Part shown: piece by piece, positions 2-37,749 of the stretch
How the letters are laid out: each line of letters opens with the position of its first letter
How positions within the stretch are numbered: the stretch's first letter is position 1
DNA from: a virus
Direction: 5' to 3' (one strand)
Length of the DNA: 64,000 nucleotides
IMG/VR virus record: IMGVR_UViG_3300008448_000032
Location: 1 to 64,000 of that record
Notes under the pieces: model-generated
Database searches by the model: none
Told to the model about the DNA's origin: nothing
The model's input: the letters and a program-made list of their open reading frames with translations, nothing else
Made by a program: the position numbers and the translations under genes

Positions 2-436
2 ATCTTAGCTGCTGCTAACGTTGTTGCTAACAGAGGAAGAAGAGGTCCTGCTAACTTTATCGTTACTAACGCTAACGTAGCAAGTGCACTTCAAGATATC
101 TCTCAGTTCACTTTCGCTCCTTTCTCAAACACTCTAACTCAAAACAACGGTACACTTTACCCTGTTGGATCTCTAGCTGGTATGACTGTATACGTAGACC
201 AAAACATGAGATACGACGATACAAGGGTATTGATTGGTAGAAAAGGTGGAGATGATGAGCCAGGATTGAAATTCATGCCTTACATGATGGCTGAGTCTAT
301 CCAAACTATCTCTGAAGGTACAATGTCTCCGAAGATAGCGGTTAAATCAAGATACGCTCTTGTAGAAGCTGGTTTCTTACCAGAAACTATGTACTTAACA
401 TTCTATGTTAATGTACCTACAGGAGGTTTAGCTTAA
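2..436 (+). CDS. Major capsid protein, gp23-like (3' part only)
   Basis: The reading frame is open from base 2 to the TAA at 434-436, so only the last 144 residues are in the window. The peptide contains GRRGPANFIVTNANVASAL, then a segment AGMTVYVDQNMRYDDT and a C-terminal KSRYALVEAGFLPETMYL. This order matches the C-terminal half of T4-type gp23 capsid proteins (GRRG-NFI, VYIDQ, K-RYG). The product would form the hexamers of the phage head. By eye its codon use differs from its neighbours: of ten Asn codons nine are AAC, while most other genes here use mostly AAT. This is expected for a very highly expressed gene. A strong terminator follows directly. Confidence 0.85.
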   Translation: MLAAANVVANRGRRGPANFIVTNANVASALQDISQFTFAPFSNTLTQNNGTLYPVGSLAGMTVYVDQNMRYDDTRVLIGRKGGDDEPGLKFMPYMMAESIQTISEGTMSPKIAVKSRYALVEAGFLPETMYLTFYVNVPTGGLA

Positions 437-485: not shown

Positions 486-492
486 TTGTATA

Positions 493-502
493 AGATATAT
501 AC
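493..502 (+). promoter_or_regulatory. Candidate late promoter box (AGATATATAC)
   Basis: A copy of the GATATATA element found throughout the window, here 23 bases before the ATG of the homing endonuclease and just after the capsid terminator. Confidence 0.4.
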
Positions 503-524
503 AATCTATACAATATTAGGAATC

Positions 525-2306: not shown

Positions 2307-3380
2307 ATGAAAAATATACCTTCTTTCAAACAATTTAATGAAAACTATTCACTTTTAGAGTCTGCTGATTCTAGATTAGAATCTATGTATTATGATTTAA
2401 AGAACGAAGCATCTATAGAAGAATCTTTGGTTACTATAAACGAAGGTCTTTTTGGCAACATGCTAAAAAATTGGGCTTCTAAAACTTTCTTGGGACCTTT
2501 AGGACTTTCTAAAGTTAAATACATAGATAAAGCTAGAGATATCCATTTAGGTCTTGAATTGCAATTATTGGCAAAAAAAGACGATTATGAGACTTCGTTA
2601 GAAAAATATAACGAAGAGATGGATAAACTTTCTTCCGATGTAGAAGGGGATAAACCTAGGATAGAAGCTATAAAAAAGAAAATAGAGGAGGAAAAAAGAA
2701 CTTTTGATGCATACGCAAAATCTCAAAGACTTAAAATCGAAAAAGCTAAAGAAGTTATAGAAGCAGCAATCGATGGAAATGAGAGAAGGAGAGTTTACGC
2801 AGACGCTGGAATGGCTGAGGATAAAATAATTTTAGCAGAGAAAGAATACGATTATGCTAAAAAAAGATCTTCTTCTGAGGATCTAGATGAATTGAGCGAT
2901 AGAATTAAAACATTAAGATCTAATCTAGAAGAAAAAATAGAAAAATTCAAAAAAAGTGAAGAGAAGAAAGACAAGAAAGAAGAGGAGATAACTAAGGATC
3001 AAAAAGAAATTATGGGAGATCCTATTGCAAAAAGAATAATAGACAAGGTTAAAAAAATTAGACCTAAAGGAATTATTGATATTACTGAAGATGTTAAGAA
3101 AGATATAGCTACTTTAGAAGCAGACGAAGAAAGACTGAAAGAAGAGATTAAAAGAAAATCTTCTACCGCTGGAAAAATACAGAAAGAAAAATACAGAAAA
3201 AGACTTAGGATTATCCAAGCTGAGATAGAAGGAAGAAAAAAACAATTAGAAGTTTTAAGAGGACTAGGGAAAGATTCCATAACTATAACTAAAAATCTAA
3301 AAAATCCTAAAAAATCACAGGAGGTTTTAGATAAAATAGCAGAGATAGACATGGAAGCTGAATCTGAAAAATCTAAATAA
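2307..3380 (+). CDS. Coiled-coil protein with capsid-targeting-like N-terminus
   Basis: This 357-aa protein is very rich in Glu and Lys and has long heptad-like stretches from about residue 85 to the end, so most of it should be coiled coil. I recognise no enzyme domain. The N-terminus MKNIPSFKQFNENYSLLE|S has the F-x2-F pattern and an L-x-E site at residue 18. A second I-x-E|G site lies in VTINEGLFGNML (about residues 44-55), a stretch resembling the start of the next gene's product (LYEGNFFDKVKNLL). It is the first of four tightly spaced genes (2307-7028) for helical proteins. By analogy with T4 internal and core proteins it may be a packaged head or prohead-core protein. Function otherwise unknown. 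Confidence 0.7.
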   Translation: MKNIPSFKQFNENYSLLESADSRLESMYYDLKNEASIEESLVTINEGLFGNMLKNWASKTFLGPLGLSKVKYIDKARDIHLGLELQLLAKKDDYETSLEKYNEEMDKLSSDVEGDKPRIEAIKKKIEEEKRTFDAYAKSQRLKIEKAKEVIEAAIDGNERRRVYADAGMAEDKIILAEKEYDYAKKRSSSEDLDELSDRIKTLRSNLEEKIEKFKKSEEKKDKKEEEITKDQKEIMGDPIAKRIIDKVKKIRPKGIIDITEDVKKDIATLEADEERLKEEIKRKSSTAGKIQKEKYRKRLRIIQAEIEGRKKQLEVLRGLGKDSITITKNLKNPKKSQEVLDKIAEIDMEAESEKSK

Positions 3381-3397
3381 AATTAAAATATAAAGAT

Positions 3398-4288
3398 ATG
3401 AACGTATCCTTTGAAGAATGGGAATCTCTTTACGAAGGAAATTTTTTCGATAAAGTAAAAAATTTATTAAGTAAATCTTTGGGAGGAGCTGTCAGCAAAT
3501 TAGATGAATTAGCTCAATCATACAGGAAAAGCGAAGCTGATTATATAAAAGACTGGGATAACGGTAGTATAGAAAAGGATAAACTGGAAATAGAATTAGC
3601 CCAATCTAAAAGTGATCCTGCTGAGATTAAAAAGATAGAGAGAATGATCAAAAGGAATAGAGATGTTCTAGCTACTGCTCAGAGAGCAAGAACGGATAGA
3701 GCTGAAGCTATAGACAAAAAAGCTAGATCTATTTGTAAAAATAATGAAAGATTGGGTACTTATTGGGATGTAGAAATTTCGAGAATTAATGCCGAAATTT
3801 CAGAAAGACTCCATAGAAAAGCAAAAGATCTTAATGACGAATCCGAAGCTTCTAAATTGTACGATATTTACCAAAGAGCTTTAATGACCTCAAAAAATAA
3901 AGAGGAAGAATTTAAATCTAAATTCGGATCTTCTTTTGCTGAAGAGGGTATTAGATCTAAAGATTTGGGGGGAGATGCAGGAGAAGGAACCGATGCTTCT
4001 CAAGAATTATATTTAAATCTACCTATTAAGGAATTTACTTCCAAGGTAAAATCTCTTTCCCCTAAAGAAAGAAGATCTTTAGTTTCCAGACTTGTAAAAG
4101 AAAGAAACGAAAGATACGTTGCCATGGATATAGAACAGGATTCTTTAATCAAACAATTAGATTCTAAGAAATTAAAAGGTAAAGATCTAGAAGAAGAAAA
4201 ATCTAAAATAAAATCTGCTAAAGAAAAATACCTAGAAGAAATAAGGGATCTTAGAGGAAAAATAACCATTGCTAGAAGAAATGATTAG
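3398..4288 (+). CDS. Helical Lys/Glu-rich protein with capsid-targeting-like N-terminus
   Basis: This 296-aa, charged, predominantly helical protein begins MNVSFEEWESLYE|GNFF. That gives F-x2-W and then L-Y-E|G at residues 11-14, a good prohead-protease-like site. The segment NFFDKVKNLLSKSLGGAVSK is amphipathic and resembles GLFGNMLKNWASKTFLG of the upstream gene, so the two may be distant relatives. The middle holds long coiled-coil stretches. It starts 17 bases after the previous stop and its stop overlaps the ATG of the next gene (ATGATTAG), indicating translational coupling. Likely an internal head or core protein by inference; no enzymatic motif seen. Confidence 0.7.
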   Translation: MNVSFEEWESLYEGNFFDKVKNLLSKSLGGAVSKLDELAQSYRKSEADYIKDWDNGSIEKDKLEIELAQSKSDPAEIKKIERMIKRNRDVLATAQRARTDRAEAIDKKARSICKNNERLGTYWDVEISRINAEISERLHRKAKDLNDESEASKLYDIYQRALMTSKNKEEEFKSKFGSSFAEEGIRSKDLGGDAGEGTDASQELYLNLPIKEFTSKVKSLSPKERRSLVSRLVKERNERYVAMDIEQDSLIKQLDSKKLKGKDLEEEKSKIKSAKEKYLEEIRDLRGKITIARRND

Positions 4289-4574
4289 ATTTAATACTTT
4301 TAAGAAATTAGGAATCTTTAATTTTTTGAACGAGGCAGAAAGTACGGATACCCTAATTAGAAAATCCGAAGAGAATCTTTCTTTAAAATTTGATGCTCTT
4401 AAAGAAGCTAAAGCAATGAAAAAACCGGGAGATATTAAATCTAAGATAGATAGCATAAATAAACAATCCCAGATATACATAGAAATCTCTAACTCTCTTA
4501 AAACATTAGGAGCTTTATACCAGAAAAAGTCTACCGAAAAAAAAGAAGTACAAGGAACAGGGGATATATACTAA
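4281..4574 (+). CDS. Small helical protein with capsid-targeting-like N-terminus
   Basis: I choose the ATG at 4281, which overlaps the previous stop (ATGATTAG), rather than an in-frame ATG 12 bases upstream. This gives 97 aa beginning MIRFNTFKKLGIFNFLNE|AEST, one of the clearest copies of the signature (F-x2-F, then L-N-E|A at residues 16-19). The rest is short, charged and probably helical. It sits third in the 2307-7028 run of helical proteins. Function unknown; size and composition suit a small internal head protein. Confidence 0.65.
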   Translation: MIRFNTFKKLGIFNFLNEAESTDTLIRKSEENLSLKFDALKEAKAMKKPGDIKSKIDSINKQSQIYIEISNSLKTLGALYQKKSTEKKEVQGTGDIY

Positions 4575-4583
4575 AACGAAAAA

Positions 4584-7028: not shown

Positions 7029-7033
7029 TCCCC

Positions 7034-7621: not shown

Positions 7622-7688
7622 TTTTTTTAATACAATAAAAATCTTATATTTATAAGAAACTATTGTTGTATTTTTTTCTATTATATTC

Positions 7689-8243
7689 ATGATCTACATA
7701 TTCGAAGGAGCTAGAAACTCGGGAAAAACTTTTCTTTCCGATTACACAAGTAAAACTTTTGGAGTTCATAAGTTTAAATTTGATTTCGTAAATTATTTTA
7801 AAGGGCTAAAACTAACTAGTGAAAATAGCAGAGAAACTCATTTTTTTGCTATGGGGAAAGAGCTGATGTTAATGCAACTATCTAGAGATCTAGGAATAGA
7901 AGATTTTATATTAGACCGAGGAATAATAACAGTTTTTTCCTGGGCTCTTCTCGAAAAAAGAATAACGGAAGAAGAAGTAAAATCCCAAATAAAATTTATA
8001 TGTGACAATAGACTTATGGATGGAATTTCTATAATTTATGTAGAAGGGGATAACCCCGATGGATCTTCCAGAAATAAAGATATATGGGATCAATTTGATT
8101 CCAATCCAGAAGAAAAAAAATGGTGTGATTTTGTCATAAATGAATTTGAAATTAATGGATTTAAAATTTTATATTTTAGAAATAATTTTTCAGTAAAAGA
8201 TCTCGAGAATATAAAAATTGTTTTTGGGTCTCTAAAGAATTAA
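7689..8243 (+). CDS. P-loop nucleotide/polynucleotide kinase-like protein
   Basis: This 184-aa protein begins MIYIFEGARNSGKTF, a Walker A loop (G-x4-GKT, residues 7-14) at the extreme N-terminus as in thymidylate, deoxynucleoside and polynucleotide kinases. FILDRGIITVFSWALLE near residue 75 resembles the DR-x-x-S segment of thymidylate-kinase-like enzymes. It would phosphorylate a nucleotide or similar substrate in the cytoplasm; the substrate cannot be told. The gene is followed four bases later by asparagine synthetase, so the two are probably co-transcribed. No capsid-targeting signature. Confidence 0.65.
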   Translation: MIYIFEGARNSGKTFLSDYTSKTFGVHKFKFDFVNYFKGLKLTSENSRETHFFAMGKELMLMQLSRDLGIEDFILDRGIITVFSWALLEKRITEEEVKSQIKFICDNRLMDGISIIYVEGDNPDGSSRNKDIWDQFDSNPEEKKWCDFVINEFEINGFKILYFRNNFSVKDLENIKIVFGSLKN

Positions 8244-8247
8244 AATT

Positions 8248-9654: not shown

Positions 9655-9673
9655 TATATACTTATATCAAAAA
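9648..9673 (+). promoter_or_regulatory. TATATA inverted repeat: late promoter box and possible terminator
   Basis: Two perfect 11-base arms (TTTTTGATATA and TATATCAAAAA) flank a 4-base TACT loop. The left arm contains the stop codon of asnB and a GATATATAC promoter-like box; the ATG at 9682 follows 8 bases after the repeat. Confidence 0.5.
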
Positions 9674-9681
9674 GAAATAAA

Positions 9682-10314
9682 ATGGAAAATGGTAGAATTA
9701 TAAAAGATTTTGATCGATTTAAATTTTTAAACGAAGACCAAACTCTTCTTGGACTTTTAACCGGAGAACTCGGGAGTCAGGTAGAAAAAGCAGGTAAAGA
9801 AGCTATAACAAATTATGCAATGGAGTATTTTGGAATCCCAGTGGATTCAGAAAATCCTGCTACCATTTGGATATTAGAATTATTTAAAAAAATAATGGCA
9901 AATATGTCTAACCGAGATTTGGAAGAAATATTAGAAGGTAGACAATCTATTGATGATGGAGAATTCTGGGTTCCTAAAGTAGTTGATGCTTTTTTAGAAA
10001 CTATACAGGATAGAGGGCCTCAGCCAGCACTTATAGTTGGAGATTGGCTTGGACTAGACACTAATAAATTTTTAGGAAGGCTTCTTATGAATGCTATAAG
10101 AAATAACCTATACAATAGATCTAAGCTTCAAAGAAATCTTTTGTCTTTATGGAATTTAGCTTCGGACGCAGAATTTATTCCTAGAGAAGAAGCTGGGGAT
10201 ATCTATAAAGAAGCAATGGGGGAATTATCTGACGAACAAAAAAAGAAAGTTAAAGATTCTGGATTATGGAACAGCGCTATTAAGCAAGCAGATACTTTAA
10301 GAAGCACTAGATAA
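9682..10314 (+). CDS. Unknown protein with capsid-targeting-like N-terminus
   Basis: This 210-aa protein starts MENGRIIKDFDRFKFLNE|DQTLLG, with F-x2-F and L-N-E at residue 18. The residue after the site is Asp rather than A/G/S. The remainder is helical and moderately hydrophobic (ETIQDRGPQPALIVGDWLGL, then NKFLGRLLMNAIRNNLYN), with no recognised motif. The ATG has an A-rich leader (AAAGAAATAAAATG) and no Shine-Dalgarno, typical of this window. It is followed ten bases later by another unknown gene, so the two are probably an operon driven by the TATATA element before it. Confidence 0.6.
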   Translation: MENGRIIKDFDRFKFLNEDQTLLGLLTGELGSQVEKAGKEAITNYAMEYFGIPVDSENPATIWILELFKKIMANMSNRDLEEILEGRQSIDDGEFWVPKVVDAFLETIQDRGPQPALIVGDWLGLDTNKFLGRLLMNAIRNNLYNRSKLQRNLLSLWNLASDAEFIPREEAGDIYKEAMGELSDEQKKKVKDSGLWNSAIKQADTLRSTR

Positions 10315-10324
10315 AAATAAAAAA

Positions 10325-11230
10325 ATGAACATTAGAGACGTTAAAAAAAGAAATATAATCAATTTTGATGATTTCTTAGATAAGGTTCACGACGAAAACT
10401 ATAAACCGATCAAAAACCAATCTTCGGAGATAAATCCTCTTAGCGGTTTATCTAATATAAAAAGACAAAAAGCTTTTGATTATGCAGGATATGCAGACAG
10501 CGTATTTGCTGGACAATCTAAGATAGATGTTCCAGGAGGAAGAATCGAAATAGGAAAAGGTAAAATAGATGCTATTTCTACAGGATCCGCTTTTTCTTCT
10601 AGCGGGGTGACTTTTGAGTCCCAAACTAGAATAAAAAGGCTAGGAGATATGATCGTAGAAGCTCAACAGATCTCAACGGTAGGTACAATTACACGGGATG
10701 AAAAAACAAAAGGACTTGGAGATCCTAAAAATTTAACCGATGTTGATCTTTTTCCTACTTTAACTAAAAAATTAAACCAGACCCGGAACTATGACCCTTT
10801 TCCTCAGATTTTTAAAGATTTCTTTAAGAGAAATTATTTTTGGTCTTCCGGAAGATTTCATTACAAGGATCCAAAAGGGGAAGGCGGAGATTGGGGCCCT
10901 TATTCTCCCAAAGGTTCTATCTGCTGGACGATGGGATATTCCTGGCCTGCTCATCCAGAAAGAGGAACTCGAAGAGTTCATTTAGAGTTTGAGCCTTCTA
11001 TGAAAAAAGTTTGGTATGTTGGGGAAGAATGGGAAGATTCCACCCCCGGATCCATTTACGGGGCAGCTAGTTGGTCTATGGATATTACGATGGATCAAGC
11101 GGGATTAAATAAAATTATCGAAGGTTTAAAAACTAGTCCTGTCTCTAGATCTTGGGGACGTTACATTATCCAATATGGAGTAGAAGTTTTCCAAAGCAAA
11201 TGGGATAATTCTATATCTTCTGGTTTTTAA
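10325..11230 (+). CDS. Unknown protein, second gene of the 9682 operon
   Basis: This 301-aa protein starts MNIRDVKKRNIINFDDFLDKVHDEN, which has the aromatic spacing (F-x2-F) but only a weak cleavage-like site. The C-terminal half is rich in Trp, Gly and Tyr (YFWSSGRFHYKDPKGEGGDW, WSMDITMDQAGLNKIIEGL, SRSWGRYIIQYGVEVFQS) and looks like a compact beta-rich domain. The N-terminal half is charged and low in complexity. No family recognised. A terminator-like hairpin lies about 80 bases downstream and closes this transcription unit. Confidence 0.6.
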   Translation: MNIRDVKKRNIINFDDFLDKVHDENYKPIKNQSSEINPLSGLSNIKRQKAFDYAGYADSVFAGQSKIDVPGGRIEIGKGKIDAISTGSAFSSSGVTFESQTRIKRLGDMIVEAQQISTVGTITRDEKTKGLGDPKNLTDVDLFPTLTKKLNQTRNYDPFPQIFKDFFKRNYFWSSGRFHYKDPKGEGGDWGPYSPKGSICWTMGYSWPAHPERGTRRVHLEFEPSMKKVWYVGEEWEDSTPGSIYGAASWSMDITMDQAGLNKIIEGLKTSPVSRSWGRYIIQYGVEVFQSKWDNSISSGF

Positions 11231-11833: not shown

Positions 11834-12616
11834 ATGAAAATTAAAAGATTTAATGATTTTATGTCAGAATCCATTTTTGATAAAGATTTTTTTAGCAGAA
11901 TAGGATCTCTAGTAAAAGATACTGGAACTCCTGGATATTCTTCTTCTAGTACTCAGCATAGCCAAAGTTCTTCAGAACCTTCTATCTCTTCTTCCGTTGA
12001 CAGAACCCCAAGAAGTATGGGACAAAAATCTTCTTTAACCCAAGGAGCTTTAACCGCAAATACAAATAAGAATGCTCCTATGGTGGTTGTTTTCGGGGGA
12101 ACCGACGTCGGAGGAAAAGCTAGCGGAAAATACATGTACGATTATTTTACTCCGGATGTTCTATCTAAGTATAATGTTTTTGTAGCAAATTCGTCGAGGA
12201 TAAACGGCGAAAAAGCTTGGAAAGAAATACAAGAAAAATCGGTAGAACTTGGGCTTAATCCTTCTAAGAAAATACTATATTTGTTTTCGGGGGGATATTT
12301 TCCTGCAATGTCAATAGGAGGAGCCGGATTAGACATGGATAAGAGAATAGACTATCTTAATAATACTTTTGATAAAATATTTTTAGTTGATATATGGATA
12401 GGAAAAAGTGGATCTACTTTCTATAAAAAATTAGCAGAAAAATGTGGAAATAAATTAGAATATTATTCTTATGGCGGAAATAATTCGGGAGGTGGATCTA
12501 ATAATATTCCAGTAAGAAATTTAATAGTCTCTAAAGCTTCTAAATCTCATTTGACTGCTCCTGATCATATGAGGACAAACGATGAAGCCATTAAATCATT
12601 AAAATCCCAATTCTAG
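11834..12616 (+). CDS. Tagged alpha/beta-fold protein of unknown function
   Basis: I choose ATG 11834 (260 aa), preceded by AAAAGGAA and a promoter box; the frame is open to 11774, but that start overlaps the upstream gene. The N-terminus MKIKRFNDFMSE|SIFDKDF continues with SRIGSLVKDTG. It is strikingly like the 32617 product (FNEFVSESILDS, then KIGSLVKST). A Ser/Thr/Pro linker follows (about residues 35-80). The C-terminal domain alternates beta strands and helices (APMVVVFGGTDVGGKASGKY, KKILYLFSGGYFPAMSIGG, FDKIFLVDIW, ending with KSHLTAPDHM), reminiscent of hydrolase-like alpha/beta folds. I cannot assign a catalytic triad. Probably a packaged effector enzyme. Confidence 0.6.
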   Translation: MKIKRFNDFMSESIFDKDFFSRIGSLVKDTGTPGYSSSSTQHSQSSSEPSISSSVDRTPRSMGQKSSLTQGALTANTNKNAPMVVVFGGTDVGGKASGKYMYDYFTPDVLSKYNVFVANSSRINGEKAWKEIQEKSVELGLNPSKKILYLFSGGYFPAMSIGGAGLDMDKRIDYLNNTFDKIFLVDIWIGKSGSTFYKKLAEKCGNKLEYYSYGGNNSGGGSNNIPVRNLIVSKASKSHLTAPDHMRTNDEAIKSLKSQF

Positions 12617-12618
12617 TT

Positions 12619-13290
12619 TTGAAGATAATAAATTTCCAAGATTATTTTTCGATTAATGAATCTAAGCATTCCTATTTTAGAAGAAAAGCTTTGGATTATT
12701 CTTTCGCGGATCTAGAACCTTTTATAGACAAAGAAACAATGTTAGAACATTACAATGTTCACTATAAGAAATATACTGATCTTTTAAATGAATGCATAGA
12801 CGAAGAATCTATACCGGTTCAAATGGGACCAAATATGGAGGGAATAATATCTATACTTAGAAATGTTGGTAGATACACAGATAAATTAAGAAATAATGCC
12901 GGAGGTTTCTATAATCATTTTTTATATTTTGATCAATTTACCCCAGAATTAAATTCTCCCGGTGGAGAAATAAAAAAATCTATTCTTACCTCTTTTGTTT
13001 CTCTATCTAATCTAAAGAAAGAAATGTTAGAAGCTGGGCTTTCCCAGTTCGGATCGGGATGGGTTTGGCTGATATCGGATTCTTCCGGAAACCTTTACAT
13101 AAAGACAACCCCAAATCAGGACAATCCCTTAATGGAAGAATCTTTTAATGATAAGATTCTATTGGGTATAGATGTTTGGGAACATGCTTACTACCTTAAA
13201 CACAAAGCAGATAGAAAATCTTACCTTAAAGAGGTTTTTAAGGTTATAGATTGGGACAAAGTAAATTCTAGATTTTTATCTTTTAATTAG
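12619..13290 (+). CDS. Fe/Mn superoxide dismutase with capsid-targeting-like N-terminus
   Basis: The start is TTG at 12619, two bases after the previous stop, giving 223 aa. From about residue 32 the protein follows the Fe/Mn-SOD family throughout: ETMLEHYNVHYKKYTDLLN with the first metal ligand at His44, NNAGGFYNHFLYF with His100, GSGWVWLI, then IDVWEHAYYLKH with Asp185 and His189. All four metal ligands are present. The reaction is dismutation of superoxide to oxygen and peroxide. Ahead of the domain is an extra N-terminus, MKIINFQDYFSINE|SKHS, with F-x2-Y and I-N-E|S at residues 12-15. This matches the packaging-type signature shared with many genes here. I infer it is carried inside the head and delivered with the DNA, or protects the packaged contents; host-derived ancestry is likely. 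Confidence 0.85.
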   Translation: MKIINFQDYFSINESKHSYFRRKALDYSFADLEPFIDKETMLEHYNVHYKKYTDLLNECIDEESIPVQMGPNMEGIISILRNVGRYTDKLRNNAGGFYNHFLYFDQFTPELNSPGGEIKKSILTSFVSLSNLKKEMLEAGLSQFGSGWVWLISDSSGNLYIKTTPNQDNPLMEESFNDKILLGIDVWEHAYYLKHKADRKSYLKEVFKVIDWDKVNSRFLSFN

Positions 13291-13644: not shown

Positions 13645-14049
13645 TTATAGGAATCTACTAAACACGTTTCCTTTGGAAATGTACCCAGAAAGATCTTCTA
13701 GAGGAACTTCTTTATCCTCGTTAGTCATTTTATAATCAGTATCCCATGTAGTAACATTAAAAGTTAAAGGGGAAAGAGATTTATCTTTCTCTGTAATTAT
13801 TCTAACAAATCCTCCGTTAGTAAGAGGAATATGACACATGAAAAGACCAGCATCTCCTATTTCTGCAGCATTTCCGGCTTTTTCTGACTCGTTAGCTATA
13901 TCAACAACCCCTTGTATATCGGTATCTTCAAAATCGATAGGACCTTTGTATCTATCGAAAGGCATCCATTGAAATATTCCTTTTTCTAAACTAACAGAAG
14001 ACTCATTCAAGCTCTGAGAAAAACTTTCAAATAATTTTATGTGTTTCAT
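13645..14049 (-). CDS. Unknown small protein with capsid-targeting-like N-terminus
   Basis: This 134-aa protein begins MKHIKLFESFSQSLNE|SSVSLE, a very clear copy of the signature with L-N-E|S at residues 14-17. The rest is a small mixed alpha/beta domain (GDAGLFMCHIPLTNGGFVRI, LTFNVTTWDTDYKM) without recognised motifs. It is a single-gene unit on the minus strand with its own TATATA box upstream and a strong terminator downstream. Likely a packaged protein by inference. Confidence 0.65.
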   Translation of the reverse strand: MKHIKLFESFSQSLNESSVSLEKGIFQWMPFDRYKGPIDFEDTDIQGVVDIANESEKAGNAAEIGDAGLFMCHIPLTNGGFVRIITEKDKSLSPLTFNVTTWDTDYKMTNEDKEVPLEDLSGYISKGNVFSRFL

Positions 14050-15462: not shown

Positions 15463-16659
15463 ATGGTAAATTTAAAATACTTTAAAATTTTCGAAAAAGA
15501 GATTTACCTTAAAGAATCTATTGAAATACAGAATGTTTTAGATAATTCTTTTTCTATAGAAGAATATAAATTAAAATCTTGCGACATAAAATATACAGAA
15601 GCAGGATCTAAAAATTATTGGAATATAAGTGCTCCCACCGAATTTACTAAAAAAATACAAATAGATCAAAAGATAAATTCAATAAAACAAAGAATAGATC
15701 CTATCTTTAAAAGAACAAAAGAATATTACATTAAATATACGGGAAGCCCTTATTTTACAAAAAAAATAAGGGAAAAATCAAGAAAACAAGGTAGAAAATG
15801 GGGTCCAACTAATAAAGCTTCTCTAGATAAATTTATAAATTCAATTTATTATCGTACTTATCCTCCTAACGATTTGCCCGGTTTTTCTCCTCCGGGACTT
15901 TTAGGCTGGGTATCCATGACGGTTTACGATAAAAAAACAAAAAAAGAAGTACCTTCTTATAATCTAATAAACATAAATATAAACGAGTTAACTAATAATT
16001 TTTCAGAGAAAGAAATGTCAGAAGTATTAATCCATGAAATGAGACACTGCATAGATGCATATTTTATCAATCAAGGGTTAGATATAGTTCCGGGAAATGA
16101 TGATTATGCTGCATTACTAGATCTGATAAGACAAGCTGGATGGAGAAAATTAACTCCCGAAGAGGATGAATTTTTAGAAAATTACTTGGGCCGTGGACTT
16201 TCAAAAGAAGAAAGGATGAAAAAATATAAATCCAACGAAATGGAAAATTCTGCAAGATATCAGAGATTGAAATCGGATATGGGAGTTTACGATTTTGGAA
16301 CTTTTGAAAATTTTATTTCTCTTTTAAAGAAAAATTTAACTGCAGAAGATAAAAAATGGAATAAAAAAACTTTAAAATTAGAAAAAATAAAAGATCTTGA
16401 ATTAGTATTTACCGAAGATGGAAAATTAAAAATCCCAACATCTTCTTCGAATCTAGATTTAACGACTACCAAAAGAATTTATTATTACTACGGGAAAAAG
16501 GAAATTAAAGATGATGTAGAAATTCTTTTTTATAATTTTTTAGAAAAAAGTAAAATTAAAAATGAATCTGTAATAAATCTAAAAAAATTATATAACCACT
16601 CTTTACAATTTGCTAAGAATGATTCCAGTAAAGGAGAAAAAGAGGAACAAACCGCTTAA
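15463..16659 (+). CDS. HExxH metalloprotease-like protein with capsid-targeting-like N-terminus
   Basis: This 398-aa protein has EVLIHEMRHCIDAYF with the zinc-protease motif H191-E-M-R-H195 inside an amphipathic helix. That is the hallmark of gluzincin/metzincin-like peptidases. The third ligand is not obvious; Glu and His residues follow in the next 80 residues. The N-terminus MVNLKYFKIFEKEIYLKE|SIE fits the packaging-type signature (F-x2-F, L-K-E|S at residues 16-19). A charged Lys-rich region flanks the domain. If both readings hold, this would be a protease packaged in the virion, able to act in the host at the start of infection or inside the head. Confidence 0.65.
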   Translation: MVNLKYFKIFEKEIYLKESIEIQNVLDNSFSIEEYKLKSCDIKYTEAGSKNYWNISAPTEFTKKIQIDQKINSIKQRIDPIFKRTKEYYIKYTGSPYFTKKIREKSRKQGRKWGPTNKASLDKFINSIYYRTYPPNDLPGFSPPGLLGWVSMTVYDKKTKKEVPSYNLINININELTNNFSEKEMSEVLIHEMRHCIDAYFINQGLDIVPGNDDYAALLDLIRQAGWRKLTPEEDEFLENYLGRGLSKEERMKKYKSNEMENSARYQRLKSDMGVYDFGTFENFISLLKKNLTAEDKKWNKKTLKLEKIKDLELVFTEDGKLKIPTSSSNLDLTTTKRIYYYYGKKEIKDDVEILFYNFLEKSKIKNESVINLKKLYNHSLQFAKNDSSKGEKEEQTA

Positions 16660-17444: not shown

Positions 17445-17867
17445 TTATTTTATAGGACCTCCTGTAACCCATGCATCACAGGTTCTTTTAGCAGCACATT
17501 TAAATTTTAGAAATCTACAATACCCCAATTCTCCTCCTTCCACGACATCCATAGGATCTTCTGATCCCTCGTCATCTCCTATCCCTTTTGCTATACAGTT
17601 AATTGTCTTTTTGGATATGTCAAAAGCTGCACAGTTTCCGCAAAGAGCGTTTTTAGCTTCTTTAACAGTATCTAATTTCCATTCTTCGGCTTTTTCGTCC
17701 CAGAATTTTTTATTTGGCTGGCTAGGATCTAATGGTCCATATCCAAATTCGTCTATAGCTTTTTGCCGATTTTTTAGATTTAGCTTTATATCCTGTGTTG
17801 CTGGGGGACAAGATTTAGCCTCATTTATGATTTCTATAAAACCATTAAATCCCTGTAGATTTTTCAT
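17445..17867 (-). CDS. Cys-cluster protein with capsid-targeting-like N-terminus
   Basis: This 140-aa protein starts MKNLQGFNGFIEIINE|AKSCPP, a clean copy of the signature (F-x2-F, I-N-E|A at residues 14-17). The C-terminal part has a cysteine set in the order LCGNCAAF, INCIAKG, LGYCRFLKFKC and KRTCDAWVTGGPI. This spacing suggests a metal or iron-sulphur centre, reminiscent of high-potential iron-sulphur-type folds; that is inference. Its start overlaps the end of the upstream minus-strand gene by 23 bases. Confidence 0.6.
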   Translation of the reverse strand: MKNLQGFNGFIEIINEAKSCPPATQDIKLNLKNRQKAIDEFGYGPLDPSQPNKKFWDEKAEEWKLDTVKEAKNALCGNCAAFDISKKTINCIAKGIGDDEGSEDPMDVVEGGELGYCRFLKFKCAAKRTCDAWVTGGPIK

Positions 17868-22425: not shown

Positions 22426-24117
22426 ATGATTAAAAGTTTTGAACAATATTTAAATGAAGCTTCTCTGGGAGGAAACCCTGGAATACCTGGGGAAGGAGGA
22501 AAATCTGGATCTTATAGGCTAGAAACTGAAATGTACTCTAAACAACAAGTAAGAGATCTAGAAAGAAGATACGGTCCTAAAATGGCACAACTTCCTATGC
22601 TAGCTAATAGATTAAGAGAGTTACAGTCCGGACACGAAAAAGATCTAGAAAAATTAGCAGAAAAAGCAATTAGATCCCTATACGGAAGAATGATAGAAGA
22701 TGTTACTCTAGATATTAAATTTCCCCAACCTGGAGAAATTCCAAAAATGATGGAAGACGTTCCTGATGCATCTCCTAAAATCCTTAAGATACCCAAAATT
22801 GAAGAGCTTAAGGACAAAGATATAATATCGGAAATCCAAAAAAGAAAAATAATAAACAACATAACCCAAGGAGAAGCAGTTAATTCCAAAAAAGCTTTAA
22901 ACCTTCCAGAAGTCATTGAAGGGATGAAGAAAATAATGGGAGACGAGAAAGCAAAAGAGTACATAAAACTTTCAAATGAAGTTAGTGATATAGCTCAAGC
23001 TTACTATTGGATAATTCCGGTAGAAGTACAGGAGAGAATGTGGAAAACCAATAAAGAGGGGATGAGTGGAGTAGTTGGCGTTGATTGGGAAGAAAAAACT
23101 GAATCTGAAGAAGACCTAGCTAAAAAAATTCTGGATAGTCTAAATAAAGACGGGGATCTTCCTAAAGAAGAGACCGAAGAACTTTTCTACGAAACTCAGC
23201 CAACAATAAAAGCAAGGGGGAAAGATTTTTCTATGCTTATCCACGAAACGGTTAAAGGAGTTTATGAACTAATCGCTGCTATTGCAATTCCTGACGGCGA
23301 AGAGGTAGCGGGAACAGTTCTTATGAATACAGATTCATTAGCAGATGAAATAGAAGATCTTAGATATGGACCTAAGATAGCATCCGATATTAGAGACTAC
23401 CTAAATACGTTCCCTGAAGTTCAAAATGATGAAGTTCCTAATCTAAGAGAACACATCATGGGCAAACTCTACATCATGGATGCCCCAGAATTTCTAGATG
23501 TTATTCTTTCTATACTTAATGGGGATAATAGACACAGAAGAAATATAGAAGGAATAATTAAAGATGTAATTAAAGAGATAAGAGATTTTGAACTAGAAGG
23601 AGCTTTAGGAGATTTTGGTATAGATAACGATGACGATTATATGCCAGAACCACAGGGTAAAAAAGATTATTCTCAAATGGATAATGTAGATCTTAAGAGA
23701 CATCTGGATGATGCTTTAGATAGAAGGGATTTTGACGAGGCAAGAATAATCCATTCTTATATAAAGGAATCTAAAGAAGCAGACGAGGCTTGGGCTCTAA
23801 TCCACACTTACGGAGGATACCCTTCTAATTCAGATCCTTCCCAGATAAATGAATCCGAAGAATTCAATGATCTATATAAAGGAACAGTTCTGACAATGGA
23901 CGTTATAGATGGAAAGACCAGAGAGAAAAAAGGAACCATAAAAACTAAAATAAACGAAATGGTTCTAGAGGGTAACTCTTATTTTCTAAGATGTTCCGGA
24001 GACGTAAATATAGTTTACGATAAAGACACACAAGAATTTGTAGAAGGTTATAAACCCCAATATTTAGTTTATCAATTGGATGAATCAAATTCTCAAATTC
24101 TAGATTTTTTAAAATAA
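22426..24117 (+). CDS. Large acidic protein with capsid-targeting-like N-terminus
   Basis: This 563-aa protein begins MIKSFEQYLNE|ASLGGNPG, one of the most T4-like copies of the signature (compare MKTYQEFIAEA of T4 internal proteins), with L-N-E|A at residues 9-12. A Gly/Pro linker follows, then long helical acidic regions. NVDLKRHLDDALDRRDFDEA, followed by RIIHSYIKESK, resembles the UvrB/UvrC interaction helix pair. A beta-rich tail comes last (GTVLTMDVIDG, NSYFLRCSGDVNIVYDKD). No enzyme motif seen. Likely abundant internal head protein by inference. Confidence 0.65.
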   Translation: MIKSFEQYLNEASLGGNPGIPGEGGKSGSYRLETEMYSKQQVRDLERRYGPKMAQLPMLANRLRELQSGHEKDLEKLAEKAIRSLYGRMIEDVTLDIKFPQPGEIPKMMEDVPDASPKILKIPKIEELKDKDIISEIQKRKIINNITQGEAVNSKKALNLPEVIEGMKKIMGDEKAKEYIKLSNEVSDIAQAYYWIIPVEVQERMWKTNKEGMSGVVGVDWEEKTESEEDLAKKILDSLNKDGDLPKEETEELFYETQPTIKARGKDFSMLIHETVKGVYELIAAIAIPDGEEVAGTVLMNTDSLADEIEDLRYGPKIASDIRDYLNTFPEVQNDEVPNLREHIMGKLYIMDAPEFLDVILSILNGDNRHRRNIEGIIKDVIKEIRDFELEGALGDFGIDNDDDYMPEPQGKKDYSQMDNVDLKRHLDDALDRRDFDEARIIHSYIKESKEADEAWALIHTYGGYPSNSDPSQINESEEFNDLYKGTVLTMDVIDGKTREKKGTIKTKINEMVLEGNSYFLRCSGDVNIVYDKDTQEFVEGYKPQYLVYQLDESNSQILDFLK

Positions 24118-24179: not shown

Positions 24180-25664
24180 ATGAAAACAACAAGACCAGTA
24201 TTTGAAAGTTTTTATTCTTTCGTAGATTTTCTTAATGAATCTATTGATGGAGAATATTACGAAGATTATCTTTTAGAGGATGAAGGAGATCCGGGAGATG
24301 AATTAGATTCTGACACAGAAACCGGAAAGCTTTCCGAATTTTCAAATAGTCTAAGAGGGATGGAAAAAATTAATCCAAAAATTGTAGAAAAACTTTCAGC
24401 TTCATTTAAAACATTGGTTACCGATGCAGGAGCAAAAGCTTTGGAATCTTATGCCCAAAAAATTGCATCTTTTGCTGCATCTACGAAATCAGGAGTTAAA
24501 TTGATAAGAAACCAATTGACTGGAGGTGGCGCCGGAGCATATTATAAGTGGTTAATTAACGGGACTTGTAAAGTTAAAGGTCAGCCAGCAATGAATGAAG
24601 AAGGAGTTATTAGAGATCTAGCTTTAACTGTAGATGACGATGGATCGTCTTTCTACCCTCTTTCTGATGTTCTTATTGGAATATTACAGAGAAATTTGAA
24701 AGCTTTATCCGATGTATTGGCAACAAAAGATGAAAAAACAATCCAAAAAGCTGCTAATGGAGGTAAAAAAGGAGGAAATGGAATAATTGAAAAAAAACAA
24801 TTGTTAACGATAGATCCAGCATCAATAAAAACCAGAATATTAGAAGTACTCCCGTACGAGAAAGAATTCCATACGGCGGCAAAAAAAGATATGAGAGACG
24901 GGACTCAAGTGGGACCAAAAGACAGCTATGTAATTTCTGCTTCCCGACTAGACGGAAAAGATAAAGTTAAATTTGGGAGATATGAATATGCCTTTGTCCT
25001 TCCTATTTGGGCTTTAGTCCCATCGTCTATAAAAGCATCTACCAACAAGGTGGATGAAAAAACATATACGACTGTTCTTCCCCCTGCTCAGGGAACTGAA
25101 ATTAAAATTGTAGATAAGCCTTTTAATTCTTCTAAAGAGCAATTCTTTTCAGCAGGATCCGTAACTTTATTACAATCAGGGGTAAATGATATGAAAGCTA
25201 TGCTTTCTCAATTTAATTCGATAGAAAAAATAAAAGTTGTAGGTGGAGCATCCCAAGCTCCTACTAAATATGTATCTTCTAATGAAGAAACAAAAAAAGA
25301 AATTACCCAAGAAAATACAAAAGCAGCAAAAGTGTTAATAGGAAATGGATATCTTGCTTATGACCGAATGCTAGCAGGGGTAAGCGCTTTTGAAAAAATG
25401 AAGGAAGATGGAATCCAGCAACTTAAAAATTGTACTATAGAAAAATCTACGGCAGATGAAGTTCTTAAAAATGTACAAACGATAGATGCAGAAAGTGATC
25501 CTAAAATGCAACAAATTACTTTTTATGTTAGTGGTATGGTCAAAGGAGTAGATCAAATAGCAGATAATAAACCAACTATAATTAAAAGGACTGTTGACAT
25601 AACATCTCAACAGGTGAAAATTGTTCAATTTCAATATGTTTTAGCATTTGATATTAAGAAATAA
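24180..25664 (+). CDS. Tagged protein with possible OmpA-like C-terminal domain
   Basis: This 494-aa protein starts MKTTRPVFESFYSFVDFLNE|SIDG, a strong signature (F-x2-F, L-N-E|S at residues 18-21), followed by an acidic stretch. The middle is a mixed domain (KSGVKLIRNQLTGGGAGAYY). Residues of about 310-410 read KEQFFSAGSVTLLQSGVNDM, IEKIKVVGGASQAPTKYVSS, EITQENTKAAKVLIGNGYLA. This resembles the OmpA-like peptidoglycan-binding fold (F-x-GS-x-L...G, GGAS, N-x-LS-x-xRA). If so it could hold peptidoglycan or a partner. A bidirectional terminator follows, so this is a single-gene unit. Confidence 0.6.
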   Translation: MKTTRPVFESFYSFVDFLNESIDGEYYEDYLLEDEGDPGDELDSDTETGKLSEFSNSLRGMEKINPKIVEKLSASFKTLVTDAGAKALESYAQKIASFAASTKSGVKLIRNQLTGGGAGAYYKWLINGTCKVKGQPAMNEEGVIRDLALTVDDDGSSFYPLSDVLIGILQRNLKALSDVLATKDEKTIQKAANGGKKGGNGIIEKKQLLTIDPASIKTRILEVLPYEKEFHTAAKKDMRDGTQVGPKDSYVISASRLDGKDKVKFGRYEYAFVLPIWALVPSSIKASTNKVDEKTYTTVLPPAQGTEIKIVDKPFNSSKEQFFSAGSVTLLQSGVNDMKAMLSQFNSIEKIKVVGGASQAPTKYVSSNEETKKEITQENTKAAKVLIGNGYLAYDRMLAGVSAFEKMKEDGIQQLKNCTIEKSTADEVLKNVQTIDAESDPKMQQITFYVSGMVKGVDQIADNKPTIIKRTVDITSQQVKIVQFQYVLAFDIKK

Positions 25665-29379: not shown

Positions 29380-30786
29380 ATGTCTAGAAGAGTTAAAAAT
29401 TATTGGAATTTTTTAAATGAAGGAAATGCCCTTACTAAAAGTAAGGCAGCAAAAACTATAACTGCTGTTATAGACCCCGATACAAGGAGAAACATTAAAA
29501 GAAAATCCCAAGGAGAAATAGAGCAAAGTAAATCCAAAGACGGACAGACTTGGGCTGCAGATACTAGATACACATATCTTCCAGAGGAAGAAGGATATGT
29601 GGGATGGTCCAAATTTCACTTCGGTAAAGTAGTTTTGAGGGAAATCGAAGAAGAAGGATCAACAGAAAATGTGTATGAAGTTTTAACCGGACTAAATAAA
29701 GGGGTAAAAGGACCTTACGAATGGCAATCCGGAAATATCGGAACCCCAATTTACAATCCTCCGTATGGAAAAAAATGGGCAGATCTCCTAGGTCCTGACG
29801 AGGAATTCTTCAACAATTATGAATGGAATTCTAATCCTCCGATGAAAATTACATCTGTTCCCGGAATCGAAATAGCTAAAGTTGGGAATAAAGGGGAATG
29901 CCAATTAATCTACACCGATAAATTTCAGCTTTACGGAAAAGTAAAAATATATCATGATTTTAATTCAGATTCTAATTTTTCTTATGAGGTTTCGGATGGA
30001 AATAATAAAGGAAAAAAAGGAAAAGGATTTTCTTTTATAAAAAGGGAAGAACTAGAAACAAAAGAAATTACTCCTTCTACCGAATTCCCTATTTTAAATA
30101 ATTTTTCAAAGGACGGAGAAATAATAAAAGCTTATGTAAAATTCCCTTATCCAACTCACAATGGATCAGGGTTTGGTGCCCAGTATGCAGGAAGTCCTTC
30201 GGGTAAACCTTATTCAATACCTTCTTCGTCAATAAACCCGGATCATTATATATGGTTAGATACTTCTGAATTTGAATCTATAAATTCTTCTAGCCTAGAT
30301 GTTTTCAAATCTCTTTACGGAGATTTGAAATATAAAGATAAATTCGGAGAAAAAACTCTCGGAAGTCAATATCAAGAAAAATCTAAATATTATTGGGCAG
30401 ACATAGGATCAGAGATAAAAGGGAATAAATTATCAGGATCTTATCTTTTCAATTATTTAGGATCTGGAAGCTACATCTATCTATATAGTGTTAATTCAAA
30501 AAACGAGAGTAATGCAAGATTAAAATGGGACGATGAAGTAGGATGTTTTGGTAATAATTTTTTCACTGGACTTTTTATTACGGGGTTTGATCTTAAAAAT
30601 CCAGGGGATAAATATACTAGAGAATATCTAAAAGGAGAATGGTTTTGGGATTACAAGAACAATTATGTGTGTTTACTATATGCTTATAATTCAAAAGGAG
30701 AAAAGAAAAGTGTAATATATAATTTAGATTCTCCTTCAGAACCGGTTCCTTATGATAAATGGGGGGGAGCAGGAGGAGATTGGTAA
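29380..30786 (+). CDS. Large unknown protein with capsid-targeting-like N-terminus
   Basis: This 468-aa protein starts MSRRVKNYWNFLNE|GNALTK, with the aromatic spacing and L-N-E|G at residues 12-15. The rest is rich in Gly, Lys, Tyr and Trp with beta-like alternation (GYVGWSKFHFGKVVLREIEE, KVKIYHDFNSDSNFSYEVSD, PDHYIWLDTSEFE). It looks like repeated small beta domains, possibly SH3-like. No family recognised. It starts four bases after the YkuD-like gene and is probably co-transcribed with it. Confidence 0.6.
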   Translation: MSRRVKNYWNFLNEGNALTKSKAAKTITAVIDPDTRRNIKRKSQGEIEQSKSKDGQTWAADTRYTYLPEEEGYVGWSKFHFGKVVLREIEEEGSTENVYEVLTGLNKGVKGPYEWQSGNIGTPIYNPPYGKKWADLLGPDEEFFNNYEWNSNPPMKITSVPGIEIAKVGNKGECQLIYTDKFQLYGKVKIYHDFNSDSNFSYEVSDGNNKGKKGKGFSFIKREELETKEITPSTEFPILNNFSKDGEIIKAYVKFPYPTHNGSGFGAQYAGSPSGKPYSIPSSSINPDHYIWLDTSEFESINSSSLDVFKSLYGDLKYKDKFGEKTLGSQYQEKSKYYWADIGSEIKGNKLSGSYLFNYLGSGSYIYLYSVNSKNESNARLKWDDEVGCFGNNFFTGLFITGFDLKNPGDKYTREYLKGEWFWDYKNNYVCLLYAYNSKGEKKSVIYNLDSPSEPVPYDKWGGAGGDW

Positions 30787-35258: not shown

Positions 35259-36323
35259 GTGAACAATCTTAATAGATTCTGCGAATGGGCGATCAATGAA
35301 GCCTCTTATTTTACTAAATGGGCTTCTACCCCATCGAACATAACAGCAGCTCAAAAAAGAGACATTGAATCCAAAGTAGAAGCTTCTTCTTCTGTTGATA
35401 TGGAAATTCTTAAAAATTTCAATCCTTCTTATAGCTCTAGATATTGGGAGGCTTTAAAAATAAGATTGGGAGAAAATAAAATAAAATTTAAATATGGAAA
35501 CACCTCAGCAATTCCTAAGCAGTGGATATATTGGGGAGAAAAGGTAATATATTCCGACAAAAGACCACTCCTTTCTAGAAATAACTCAACTAAAGAGGAG
35601 GTTTTAGCTTATTTTCCTATCCCATTCAACGGAGTAGTTCTAGATAAATTTTGGGTTGTTGCAGTATGGAAAAACGCTTCGGGAGTAAATATGTTAAGGG
35701 AAATGTCTTTAAAGACATACCTTACTAAAAGTACTAGGGATATAATAGATATTTATTTTAAGGGATATTCTTCCCCGGTGACCAATAAATCAAATCCCAA
35801 AGATTATTGGACCCTTATCGCTATAATGGCCTGTGAAAATTTTCCAGAACAATCTCAGGGAATGGCAGATGTTGCTCAATCTATATACAATAGATATTAT
35901 GTTAATGGAAAGCCTTACGGTAAAACCATATCTGAAATAATACTTGCTAAAGGACAATACGAACCCGTTACAAAAGGATTAAAGAAAGGAGCAGACTGGA
36001 AAAATGTAAATAGCAGATCTAAAGCTATAAGTGTTTATATGAAGACTAAAGGAAGTACATCAGATGTAGCTAATAAAGCAATAAATAATGCTATAGCTGC
36101 ACAATCCGGTAAATCTTATGTCTCCCAGGCAAAATCCCACGTGAAGACAAGAACAGAATTTTTGGCTTCTTCTCCTAAGTCTTCTTCCGCGGTTTCTCCG
36201 GTAGAAAGATCTGATCCAAAAAAACACAATTCTTTTTTCTGGAACTATGCCGGAAAAAATCAATATTATGCTAAAAAAGATTTCTCAGCAAAGCCTATCC
36301 CATCGGAAGTTAAGATCGCTTAA
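35259..36323 (+). CDS. SleB/CwlJ-like cell-wall hydrolase with capsid-targeting-like N-terminus
   Basis: This 354-aa protein has a GTG start and reads MNNLNRFCEWAINE|ASYFTK, with F-x2-W and I-N-E|A at residues 12-15. The catalytic domain (about residues 180-275) reads LIAIMACENFPEQSQGMADV, AQSIYNRYYVNGKPYGKTIS and EIILAKGQYEPV. This follows the SleB/Hydrolase_2 pattern (E-A--E-..G--AVA-V--NR ... GQF), with Glu193 as the likely catalytic residue. These enzymes cleave the glycan strand of peptidoglycan. The first 180 residues are a separate region of unknown fold, and the Ser-rich tail ends with NSFFWNYAGKNQYYAK. I infer a virion-packaged lysin, possibly acting at genome entry. Confidence 0.7.
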   Translation: MNNLNRFCEWAINEASYFTKWASTPSNITAAQKRDIESKVEASSSVDMEILKNFNPSYSSRYWEALKIRLGENKIKFKYGNTSAIPKQWIYWGEKVIYSDKRPLLSRNNSTKEEVLAYFPIPFNGVVLDKFWVVAVWKNASGVNMLREMSLKTYLTKSTRDIIDIYFKGYSSPVTNKSNPKDYWTLIAIMACENFPEQSQGMADVAQSIYNRYYVNGKPYGKTISEIILAKGQYEPVTKGLKKGADWKNVNSRSKAISVYMKTKGSTSDVANKAINNAIAAQSGKSYVSQAKSHVKTRTEFLASSPKSSSAVSPVERSDPKKHNSFFWNYAGKNQYYAKKDFSAKPIPSEVKIA

Positions 36324-36780: not shown

Positions 36781-37749
36781 ATGAGAGAAATTCTAGAATA
36801 CGAAAGTTTTAATCCTCTTCACGAATCTAAAAAATATGAGGGCCTAAGATCTGTTAAAAAAACTTGGGGTGGAGAATACATTCTAGACGTTGACGATTAT
36901 CAAAAGACAAACAGCAAACCTTTAAAGGGATCTATATTAATAGGAAAGGATAGCGGAAAAGCCGTTGCTCTTACATATTTAAATCCGGATGGAAGCGAAT
37001 CTAAATACCTTTGGGTTCCTTATTTCGGAGCTTATATGAATAGAAATACCGCAGGAGGGATAAGCTCTATTAAAATAACACCTTATAAAAATTGGTTATC
37101 GCAGTCAGAAAATGAAAAAAAGCTTGAAGATTTTTTAGATGGATTTCAAGAATCTATAGAAAAAGAAAAAACTGAAAGCGAGAAAACCGTAGGACTTCAG
37201 GCACAAAAAGATTTAGACCTTATATTAGACATGTACGGAATAAATTCTCCGATAGAAAAATTTGAAAAAGGGGATAGAGAAAATGAATGGAGAGCTATTC
37301 TAGAAAATGGATTTGTCGTCATAATAAAAAAGAGATCTTCTGAGGATCTTGTAGGAGAATTTAGAATTTACCCCAAGGAAAAAGAAGAATTTCCATATAT
37401 AGAGATAAGCACGGAAAAAAATGAGAAAGGGTTTAAATTTAAAAGACCCGGAGAATATATGATTCGAAGAAGAATAGATATGACCGACCTCAAAAAAGAT
37501 CCCGTAGCTTTATACCTGTTTAAGAATATAACAGGTCTCCAAGAATATGAGGACGAAAAATCATTATTGAACTATTTTGAATCTCTAGTAAAATCTCAGG
37601 ATACTTCTTACCAAATGTCGGATGATTCCAGATCTTATAAGAGTGGACAGTCCGAAAGAGAAGAAATAAATCTGGTTTCCAAATTACTAGAGGATTTCTT
37701 AACTTCTAAAAAAATAGAAGAAATCTACACAAAGAACAAAAAAAGATAG
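36781..37749 (+). CDS. Unknown protein with capsid-targeting-like N-terminus
   Basis: This 322-aa protein starts MREILEYESFNPLHE|SKKYEG, with L-H-E|S at residues 13-16. A beta-rich region follows (GEYILDVDDYQ, SILIGKDSGKAVALTYLNPD), then a helical charged linker and a second domain (EWRAILENGFVVIIKKRSSE). The Lys/Glu-rich tail is probably helical. It is the last tagged gene going rightwards; none of the structural genes from 39938 onwards has the tag. Confidence 0.6.
   Translation: MREILEYESFNPLHESKKYEGLRSVKKTWGGEYILDVDDYQKTNSKPLKGSILIGKDSGKAVALTYLNPDGSESKYLWVPYFGAYMNRNTAGGISSIKITPYKNWLSQSENEKKLEDFLDGFQESIEKEKTESEKTVGLQAQKDLDLILDMYGINSPIEKFEKGDRENEWRAILENGFVVIIKKRSSEDLVGEFRIYPKEKEEFPYIEISTEKNEKGFKFKRPGEYMIRRRIDMTDLKKDPVALYLFKNITGLQEYEDEKSLLNYFESLVKSQDTSYQMSDDSRSYKSGQSEREEINLVSKLLEDFLTSKKIEEIYTKNKKR

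What the first reader, a model, noticed from the sequence alone, without database searches (positions are those of the whole stretch)
12619..13290. A superoxide dismutase that appears to be packaged in the phage head
The Fe/Mn-SOD domain retains all four metal ligands (His44, His100, Asp185, His189). It is preceded by an extra roughly 30-residue N-terminus, MKIINFQDYFSINE|SKHS, that matches the capsid-targeting-type tag of its neighbours. A virion-borne antioxidant enzyme delivered with the genome would be a new kind of internal protein, perhaps countering an oxidative host response or protecting packaged DNA and metal enzymes.
Basis: partly seen in the sequence, partly recalled or inferred. 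Interest (0 to 1): 0.85.

Follow-up and report, generated by a model that had tools for sequence, protein, structure and literature searches.

The report
Phage-head-packaged superoxide dismutase
A giant freshwater bacterial virus carries an intact superoxide-destroying enzyme with a short removable tag that in phage T4 loads proteins into the virus head, so the enzyme is probably shipped inside the particle with the viral DNA; the same tag pattern recurs in many distantly related phages.

Summary
Window 12619-13290 (+, TTG start) encodes a Mn-type Fe/Mn superoxide dismutase. All four metal ligands are present and the domain is under strong purifying selection (dN/dS 0.03). It carries an N-terminal tag ending INE|S. 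The extension is about 18 residues, not 30.

The packaging reading is well supported by comparison, though not proven biochemically for this phage. The window begins inside the T4-type major capsid gene. In relatives the gene just before it is a gp21-type prohead protease, and T4 gp21 cuts after L/I-X-E. Of 19 independent viral SOD extensions, 18 carry [ILVF]-x-E just before the SOD domain (shuffled mean 4.9); the 80 nearest bacterial SODs have no extension or mostly signal-peptide-like leaders. Neighbouring genes share the tag; tail genes do not. A distant homologue in Pseudomonas jumbo phage PA5oct has an IAE|A tag and is marked 'ESI-MS/MS' in GenBank.

In one branch SOD is fused to a predicted nuclease through a linker with two invariant [IL]-x-E sites, as if a packaged polyprotein.

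Precedents: phage SOD genes are reported as ROS-defence genes; PBCV-1 packages an unrelated Cu/Zn SOD. I found no report of tag-targeted SOD in a phage head. The benefit is untested.

The parts
12619..13290 (+). Fe/Mn superoxide dismutase precursor, 223 aa (TTG start)
   Evidence: dN/dS 0.033
12619..12660 (+). Putative capsid-targeting propeptide MKIINFQDYFSINE (residues 1-14), predicted cut after Glu14
   Evidence: T4 motif L/I-X-E (PMC9026906); conserved as MKIINFYDYLPINE|A in L005; helix 6-14 with low pLDDT; 18/19 viral SOD extensions carry the motif
12661..13287 (+). Predicted mature SOD starting at Ser15; ligands H44, H100, D185, H189 (precursor numbering)
182..436 (+). C-terminal end of the T4-type major capsid protein (Gp23)
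   Evidence: Pfam Gp23 1.3e-9; 96% identical to the C-terminus of the MCP of relative G043
2307..3380 (+). Tagged protein MKNIPSFKQFNENYSLLE|S; tag kept in relatives
3398..4288 (+). Tagged protein MNVSFEEWESLYE|G (G043: MTLNFTEWERLNE|A)
4281..4574 (+). Tagged protein MIRFNTFKKLGIFNFLNE|A
9682..10314 (+). Tagged protein MENGRIIKDFDRFKFLNE|D (L005: ...FKKVNE|S)
11834..12616 (+). Gene directly upstream of SOD, tagged MKIKRFNDFMSE|S (ORF opens at 11774; likely start 11834)
13645..14049 (-). Tagged protein MKHIKLFESFSQSLNE|S
15463..16659 (+). Tagged protein MVNLKYFKIFEKEIYLKE|S, weak SprT-like metalloprotease match
17445..17867 (-). Tagged protein MKNLQGFNGFIEIINE|A
22426..24117 (+). Tagged protein MIKSFEQYLNE|A
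24180..25664 (+). Tagged protein MKTTRPVFESFYSFVDFLNE|S
29380..30786 (+). Tagged protein MSRRVKNYWNFLNE|G (G041: MRRVKDYRTYLNE|S)
35259..36323 (+). Tagged cell-wall hydrolase MNNLNRFCEWAINE|A (Hydrolase_2 1.8e-6)
36781..37749 (+). Tagged protein MREILEYESFNPLHE|S

Best explanation
The gene encodes a working Mn-type superoxide dismutase that a T4-type jumbo phage packages inside its head. The N-terminal ~14 residues act as a capsid-targeting propeptide: they bind the prohead core or scaffold, bringing SOD into the prohead. The phage's gp21-type (S77) prohead protease then cuts after Glu14 (I-N-E|S), leaving mature SOD among the DNA, to be ejected with it into the next cell. Delivered SOD removes superoxide from the first minute of infection, before any phage gene is expressed, protecting incoming DNA, co-delivered proteins or the host's Fe-S enzymes. 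Basis: enzyme identity and tag are shown by sequence; protease specificity, packaging and cleavage are inferred by homology to T4; ejection and the protective role are inferred only.
For: SOD domain intact and under purifying selection. The tag ends in the T4 gp21 motif L/I-X-E at the length of T4 propeptides. The window starts in the Gp23 gene; in relative G043 the next gene upstream is the S77 protease, fused to a scaffold-like tail of repeats (YSEYLAEN...) carrying [LIV]-A-E every 14 residues, and L-N-E|S at MCP residue 43 is invariant in 14 MCPs. 8 of 9 SOD-bearing IMG/VR contigs over 100 kb, plus PA5oct and Vibrio 2.275.O, carry S77. [ILVF]-x-E 6-14 residues before the SOD domain in 18/19 viral extensions, shuffle mean 4.9, maximum 11 in 5000 shuffles. 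In several distant phages SOD is the only gene nearby with such a tag. Tags are absent from tail genes and their Glu is kept across orthologues in most cases. PA5oct homologue MNDSIKKYISIAE|A is noted ESI-MS/MS; in that phage N-terminal [IL]xE[ASG] is enriched among MS-detected proteins, 9/93 against 9/314, p=0.009. T4 CTS fusions carry foreign enzymes into heads and host cells (PMC9026906).
Against: No virion data for this phage. Its own protease gene lies off the 86.9 kb fragment (no S77 hit in G000). PA5oct's MS list also holds soluble replication enzymes (RNR, thymidylate synthase, ligase), so carry-over is possible, and that homologue is only ~30% identical with altered second-sphere residues (NHE in place of NQD). 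Three viral SOD clusters (L028, L045, L059) and Vibrio 2.275.O lack the N-terminal tag. L/I-x-E is a short motif, and the shuffle test ignores relatedness. SOD is absent from 27 other records of this phage family that were searched, so it is accessory.
Confidence: 0.74

Rival explanations
1. SOD is an ordinary auxiliary metabolic gene acting in the infected cell's cytoplasm; the N-terminal tag is incidental or serves another purpose.
For: Freshwater phages are reported to carry SOD and other ROS-defence genes thought to protect the infected host (PMC6802176); three viral clusters have no tag.
Against: It does not explain a short [ILVF]-x-E tag in 18/19 otherwise dissimilar extensions, the same tag on neighbours but not on tail proteins, or the PA5oct MS detection.
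Confidence: 0.15
2. SOD is packaged and works mainly within the particle, protecting packaged DNA or metal enzymes from photochemical superoxide or keeping Mn in the head; ejection is incidental. (A variant of the packaging reading, differing in where the enzyme works.)
For: Sunlit freshwater or marine origin of many relatives (inference from the collections); full active site.
Against: Superoxide does not readily damage DNA directly, SOD makes H2O2, and no catalase-like tagged protein was seen among the window proteins scanned (inference).
Confidence: 0.2
3. The packaged SOD fold is used as a structural or DNA-binding internal protein and catalysis is not needed.
For: PA5oct homologue has changed second-sphere residues though all ligands are kept.
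Against: Complete active site and dN/dS 0.033 in the window pair.
Confidence: 0.08

Closest known systems
T4 internal proteins IPI, IPII, IPIII and Alt with capsid-targeting sequences, processed by gp21
   Same: Short N-terminal propeptide ending L/I-X-E, gp21-family protease, cargo not needed for structure, loss and gain between relatives (PMC9026906, PMC5694885)
   Different: Cargo here is a conserved metabolic redox enzyme; T4 IPI is an injected anti-restriction protein and Alt is an ADP-ribosyltransferase (latter from own knowledge). Packaging not shown here
PBCV-1 A245R and other virion-packaged viral SODs
   Same: Virus-encoded SOD packaged in the virion; less superoxide in infected cells (PMC7019647)
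   Different: Cu/Zn SOD fold of a eukaryotic algal virus; no prohead-protease tag route described
Phage SODs reported as ROS-defence auxiliary genes in freshwater metagenomes
   Same: SODs among ROS-defence genes of freshwater phages (PMC6802176); Fe/Mn SOD among viral genes of a Lake Erie bloom (PMC12542629)
   Different: Read as host protection during infection; packaging or tag not mentioned in the passages found
Bacteroidota MnSOD (Sphingobacterium 6gsc/5a9g)
   Same: Fold, ligands, Mn-type Gln167; nearest solved and genomic relatives
   Different: No such tag; the viral set is split from all 40 bacterial rows in 98% of bootstrap trees

Membership tests
Fe/Mn superoxide dismutase (SodFM) | Both Pfam domains over cut-off | tested here: met
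Fe/Mn superoxide dismutase (SodFM) | His-His-Asp-His metal ligands plus second-sphere H/Y/W/Q/E | tested here: met
   Invariant H44, H48, Y52, H100, W148, Q167, D185, W187, E188, H189 in 34 sequences
Fe/Mn superoxide dismutase (SodFM) | Superoxide dismutation activity | not testable with these tools
   Needs an enzyme assay
T4-type CTS-targeted internal head protein | N-terminal propeptide of about 7-20 residues ending L/I-X-E | tested here: met
   MKIINFQDYFSINE|S; 18/19 viral extensions; motif from PMC9026906
T4-type CTS-targeted internal head protein | gp21-family (S77) prohead protease in the same phage | tested here: inconclusive
   Not in the 86.9 kb fragment; present in 18 of 21 other records of the same family, next to the MCP where the window is cut off
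T4-type CTS-targeted internal head protein | L/I-x-E sites also in scaffold and capsid proteins | tested here: met
   Relatives: scaffold-like repeats and MCP SLNE|S at residue 43
T4-type CTS-targeted internal head protein | Mature cleaved protein present inside the virion | tested here: inconclusive
   PA5oct homologue noted ESI-MS/MS; no data for the window phage
PBCV-1-type packaged SOD | Cu/Zn SOD fold | tested here: not met
   Fe/Mn SOD domains and fold

The most novel reading that the evidence does not exclude
Head-packaged SOD is an old, widespread phage strategy: many unrelated T4-type and jumbo phages load a Mn-SOD, in one branch as a self-separating SOD-nuclease polyprotein, and inject it so that superoxide produced at infection is quenched before phage genes are expressed.
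Probability: 0.45. Interest if true: 0.85.

Novelty: new variant of a known kind. Interest (0 to 1): 0.74.

Why it matters
If true, phages deliver a ready-made antioxidant enzyme with their DNA, implying that superoxide is a real obstacle in the first minutes of infection, possibly part of a host response. It would turn a gene class read as host-supporting metabolism into an injected effector. It also gives a sequence rule (short N-terminal L/I-x-E tag beside a gp21-type protease) for predicting virion cargo in uncultured jumbo phages.

Tried and rejected
Signal peptide: rejected for the window tag by reading the sequence; it is charged and has no hydrophobic core, unlike the leaders of exported bacterial SODs. 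Recent acquisition from a bacterium: not supported by the tree, viral and bacterial rows separate in 98% of bootstraps, though bacterial sampling was limited to the 80 nearest. Chance motif: rejected by shuffles. General N-terminal bias of these genomes: rejected by tail genes, internal windows and SOD-only neighbourhoods. Scans that led nowhere: genome contigs with the window SOD alone found no relative; the 814-aa neighbour found only the same relative; Pfam and PHROGs gave nothing for most tagged neighbours; PDB sequence search of the fused C-terminal domain was empty. 'Phage' records OR84xxxx/OR85xxxx and MW462191 look like bacterial DNA and were not used. The PA5oct omics paper is not in the library, so the MS note rests on the GenBank record alone.

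Full report
What is there. The ORF at 12619-13290 (+) encodes 223 aa matching both Fe/Mn-SOD domains, closest in the PDB to Sphingobacterium MnSOD. The metal ligands H44, H100, D185 and H189 and the second-sphere residues H48, Y52, W148, Q167, W187 and E188 are invariant in a 34-sequence viral and bacterial alignment. Gln167 in NQD and Gly96 are the Mn-type arrangement (established SOD knowledge). AlphaFold2 folds the domain with high confidence and leaves residues 1-20 loosely placed, with a helix at 6-14. Against the 92%-identical orthologue in L005, the domain has dN/dS 0.033 while the tag has changed faster, yet keeps F..DY..INE apart from F10L. GC matches the phage (31% against 33%). The TTG start follows directly on the upstream gene and is ATG in L005.

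Where it lies. Window 182-436 is the C-terminus of the T4-type capsid protein Gp23, so the window, which is also the start of an 86.9 kb fragment, opens inside the capsid gene. Its relatives are jumbo phages up to 373 kb. In relative G043 the order is S77 protease, MCP, then genes syntenic with window 2307-11230. The protease ORF carries a long tail of 14-residue repeats such as YSEYLAENLDK, each with [LIV]-A-E: a likely protease-scaffold fusion built to be shredded, as T4 gp22 is. All 14 MCPs compared share SLNE|S at residue 43. T4 gp21 cuts after L/I-X-E and removes short N-terminal propeptides, the capsid-targeting sequences (PMC9026906; PMC5694885). S77 is found in 18 of 21 other records of the family. 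SOD was found in none of the 27 family records searched besides G000; it is otherwise known in this family only in L005. In G043 the window's 11.3-35 kb stretch, with SOD and many tagged genes, is replaced by a single gene, so this looks like a variable cargo island.

Is the tag real? Among genes at 2-39 kb, 12 of 47 carry [IL]xE[ASG] at residues 5-28, against 3-4 in internal windows of the same proteins; none of 27 tail genes does. The Glu of the tags is kept between the window and its relatives in most cases although flanking residues change. In the wider collection 80 viral SOD loci were fetched. They and the window protein form 21 clusters below 75% identity. Adding PA5oct and Vibrio 2.275.O, 19 sequences have an extension, and 18 of these carry [ILVF]-x-E 6-14 residues before the domain; 5000 shuffles gave a mean of 4.9 and a maximum of 11. 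Examples: MKIRITESQYNLILE|G, MKLMSILTE|A, MNYDKLADLILE|E, MKTFNQQISHILE|A, MRELIKKILKEGFLSE|A. Three clusters start directly at the domain. Of the 80 nearest bacterial SODs, 55 have no extension and the rest mostly have export-type leaders; a loose form of the motif occurs in 9 of 80. In several distant phages the SOD is the only tagged gene within about 12 kb, so this is not a genome-wide N-terminal habit. Caveat: shuffles ignore common descent.

Is it packaged? Indirect support comes from PA5oct, a cultured Pseudomonas jumbo phage. EST35_0261, called hypothetical, is an SOD homologue with all four ligands and the N-terminus MNDSIKKYISIAE|A, and the record notes ESI-MS/MS. 93 of its CDS bear this note and most unknown ones among them are named structural protein, so a particle proteome is the likely source. 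N-terminal [IL]xE[ASG] is enriched among noted proteins, 9/93 against 9/314, p=0.009. Soluble enzymes are in the list too, so carry-over is not excluded. All but one of the nine SOD-bearing IMG/VR contigs over 100 kb, PA5oct and Vibrio 2.275.O have the S77 protease.

An unexpected variant. In one clade SOD is followed by a linker and a ~270-aa domain. Two linker glutamates are invariant in 13 sequences and sit in [IL]-x-E. The C-terminal domain has an E...D-x12-Q-I-K pattern and weak structural matches to PD-(D/E)XK endonucleases and Holliday junction resolvases (model confidence is low, no Pfam or PDB sequence match). The simplest reading is a polyprotein cut in the prohead into SOD and nuclease.

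How it probably works. SOD joins the prohead core by its tag, is cut after Glu14, stays with the DNA and is ejected. T4 CTS fusions with beta-galactosidase, EcoRI or GFP reach 20-200 copies per head and enter the host (PMC9026906), so an SOD of about 24 kDa is an easy cargo. The benefit is the weakest step: superoxide rises in algae infected by chloroviruses and is lower with PBCV-1, which packages Cu/Zn SOD (PMC7019647). Freshwater phages are thought to use ROS-defence genes (PMC6802176). For bacteria, one Campylobacter phage is hindered by peroxide stress, while the two phages compared infected a sodB mutant similarly (PMC8540345).

Novelty. Each ingredient is known: CTS cargo, viral SOD, virion SOD in a eukaryotic virus. 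A head-targeted SOD in phages, its breadth, and the SOD-nuclease polyprotein are not in the papers I could search; that library is partial. I rate it a new variant of a known kind.

Noticed in passing
L040:5881-7419 and L035, L037, L041-L044, L049, L050, L056, L064, L066, L072, L076: SOD fused through a linker with two invariant Glu in [IL]-x-E context to a ~270-aa predicted PD-(D/E)XK-like nuclease domain: possible packaged polyprotein.
   Followed up: partly
L251:13-1977 (G043) and L255-L267: S77 prohead protease fused to a long scaffold-like tail of 14-residue repeats (YSEYLAENLDK...) with an [LIV]-A-E site in each repeat.
   Followed up: partly
window 11834-12616 and 32617-33408: Two otherwise different proteins share an extended ~30-aa N-terminus (FNxFxSESxxDxxxFxxIGSLVK), as if tags move between cargo genes; the second has a weak NlpC/P60-CHAP match.
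   Followed up: no
window 35259-36323: A cell-wall hydrolase (Hydrolase_2/SleB-like) carries the same type of tag (AINE|A).
   Followed up: no
L004:7986-8555 (Vibrio phage 2.275.O): SOD homologue without N-terminal tag has a C-terminal extension with LDE|S (KMLDESVNIRHLINFISK), possibly a C-terminal propeptide like that of T4 Alt.
   Followed up: no
L015:5737-6651: SOD preceded by a ~100-aa extra N-terminal region with tag-like LKSLLMEE just before the SOD domain.
   Followed up: no
window 486-2267: Homing/HNH endonuclease directly after the major capsid gene end (phrog_3339, 1e-101).
   Followed up: no
window 18204-18746: DUF5824 protein has a tag-like stretch MDYESFSNSLNE|G in the middle of the chain rather than at its N-terminus.
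   Followed up: no
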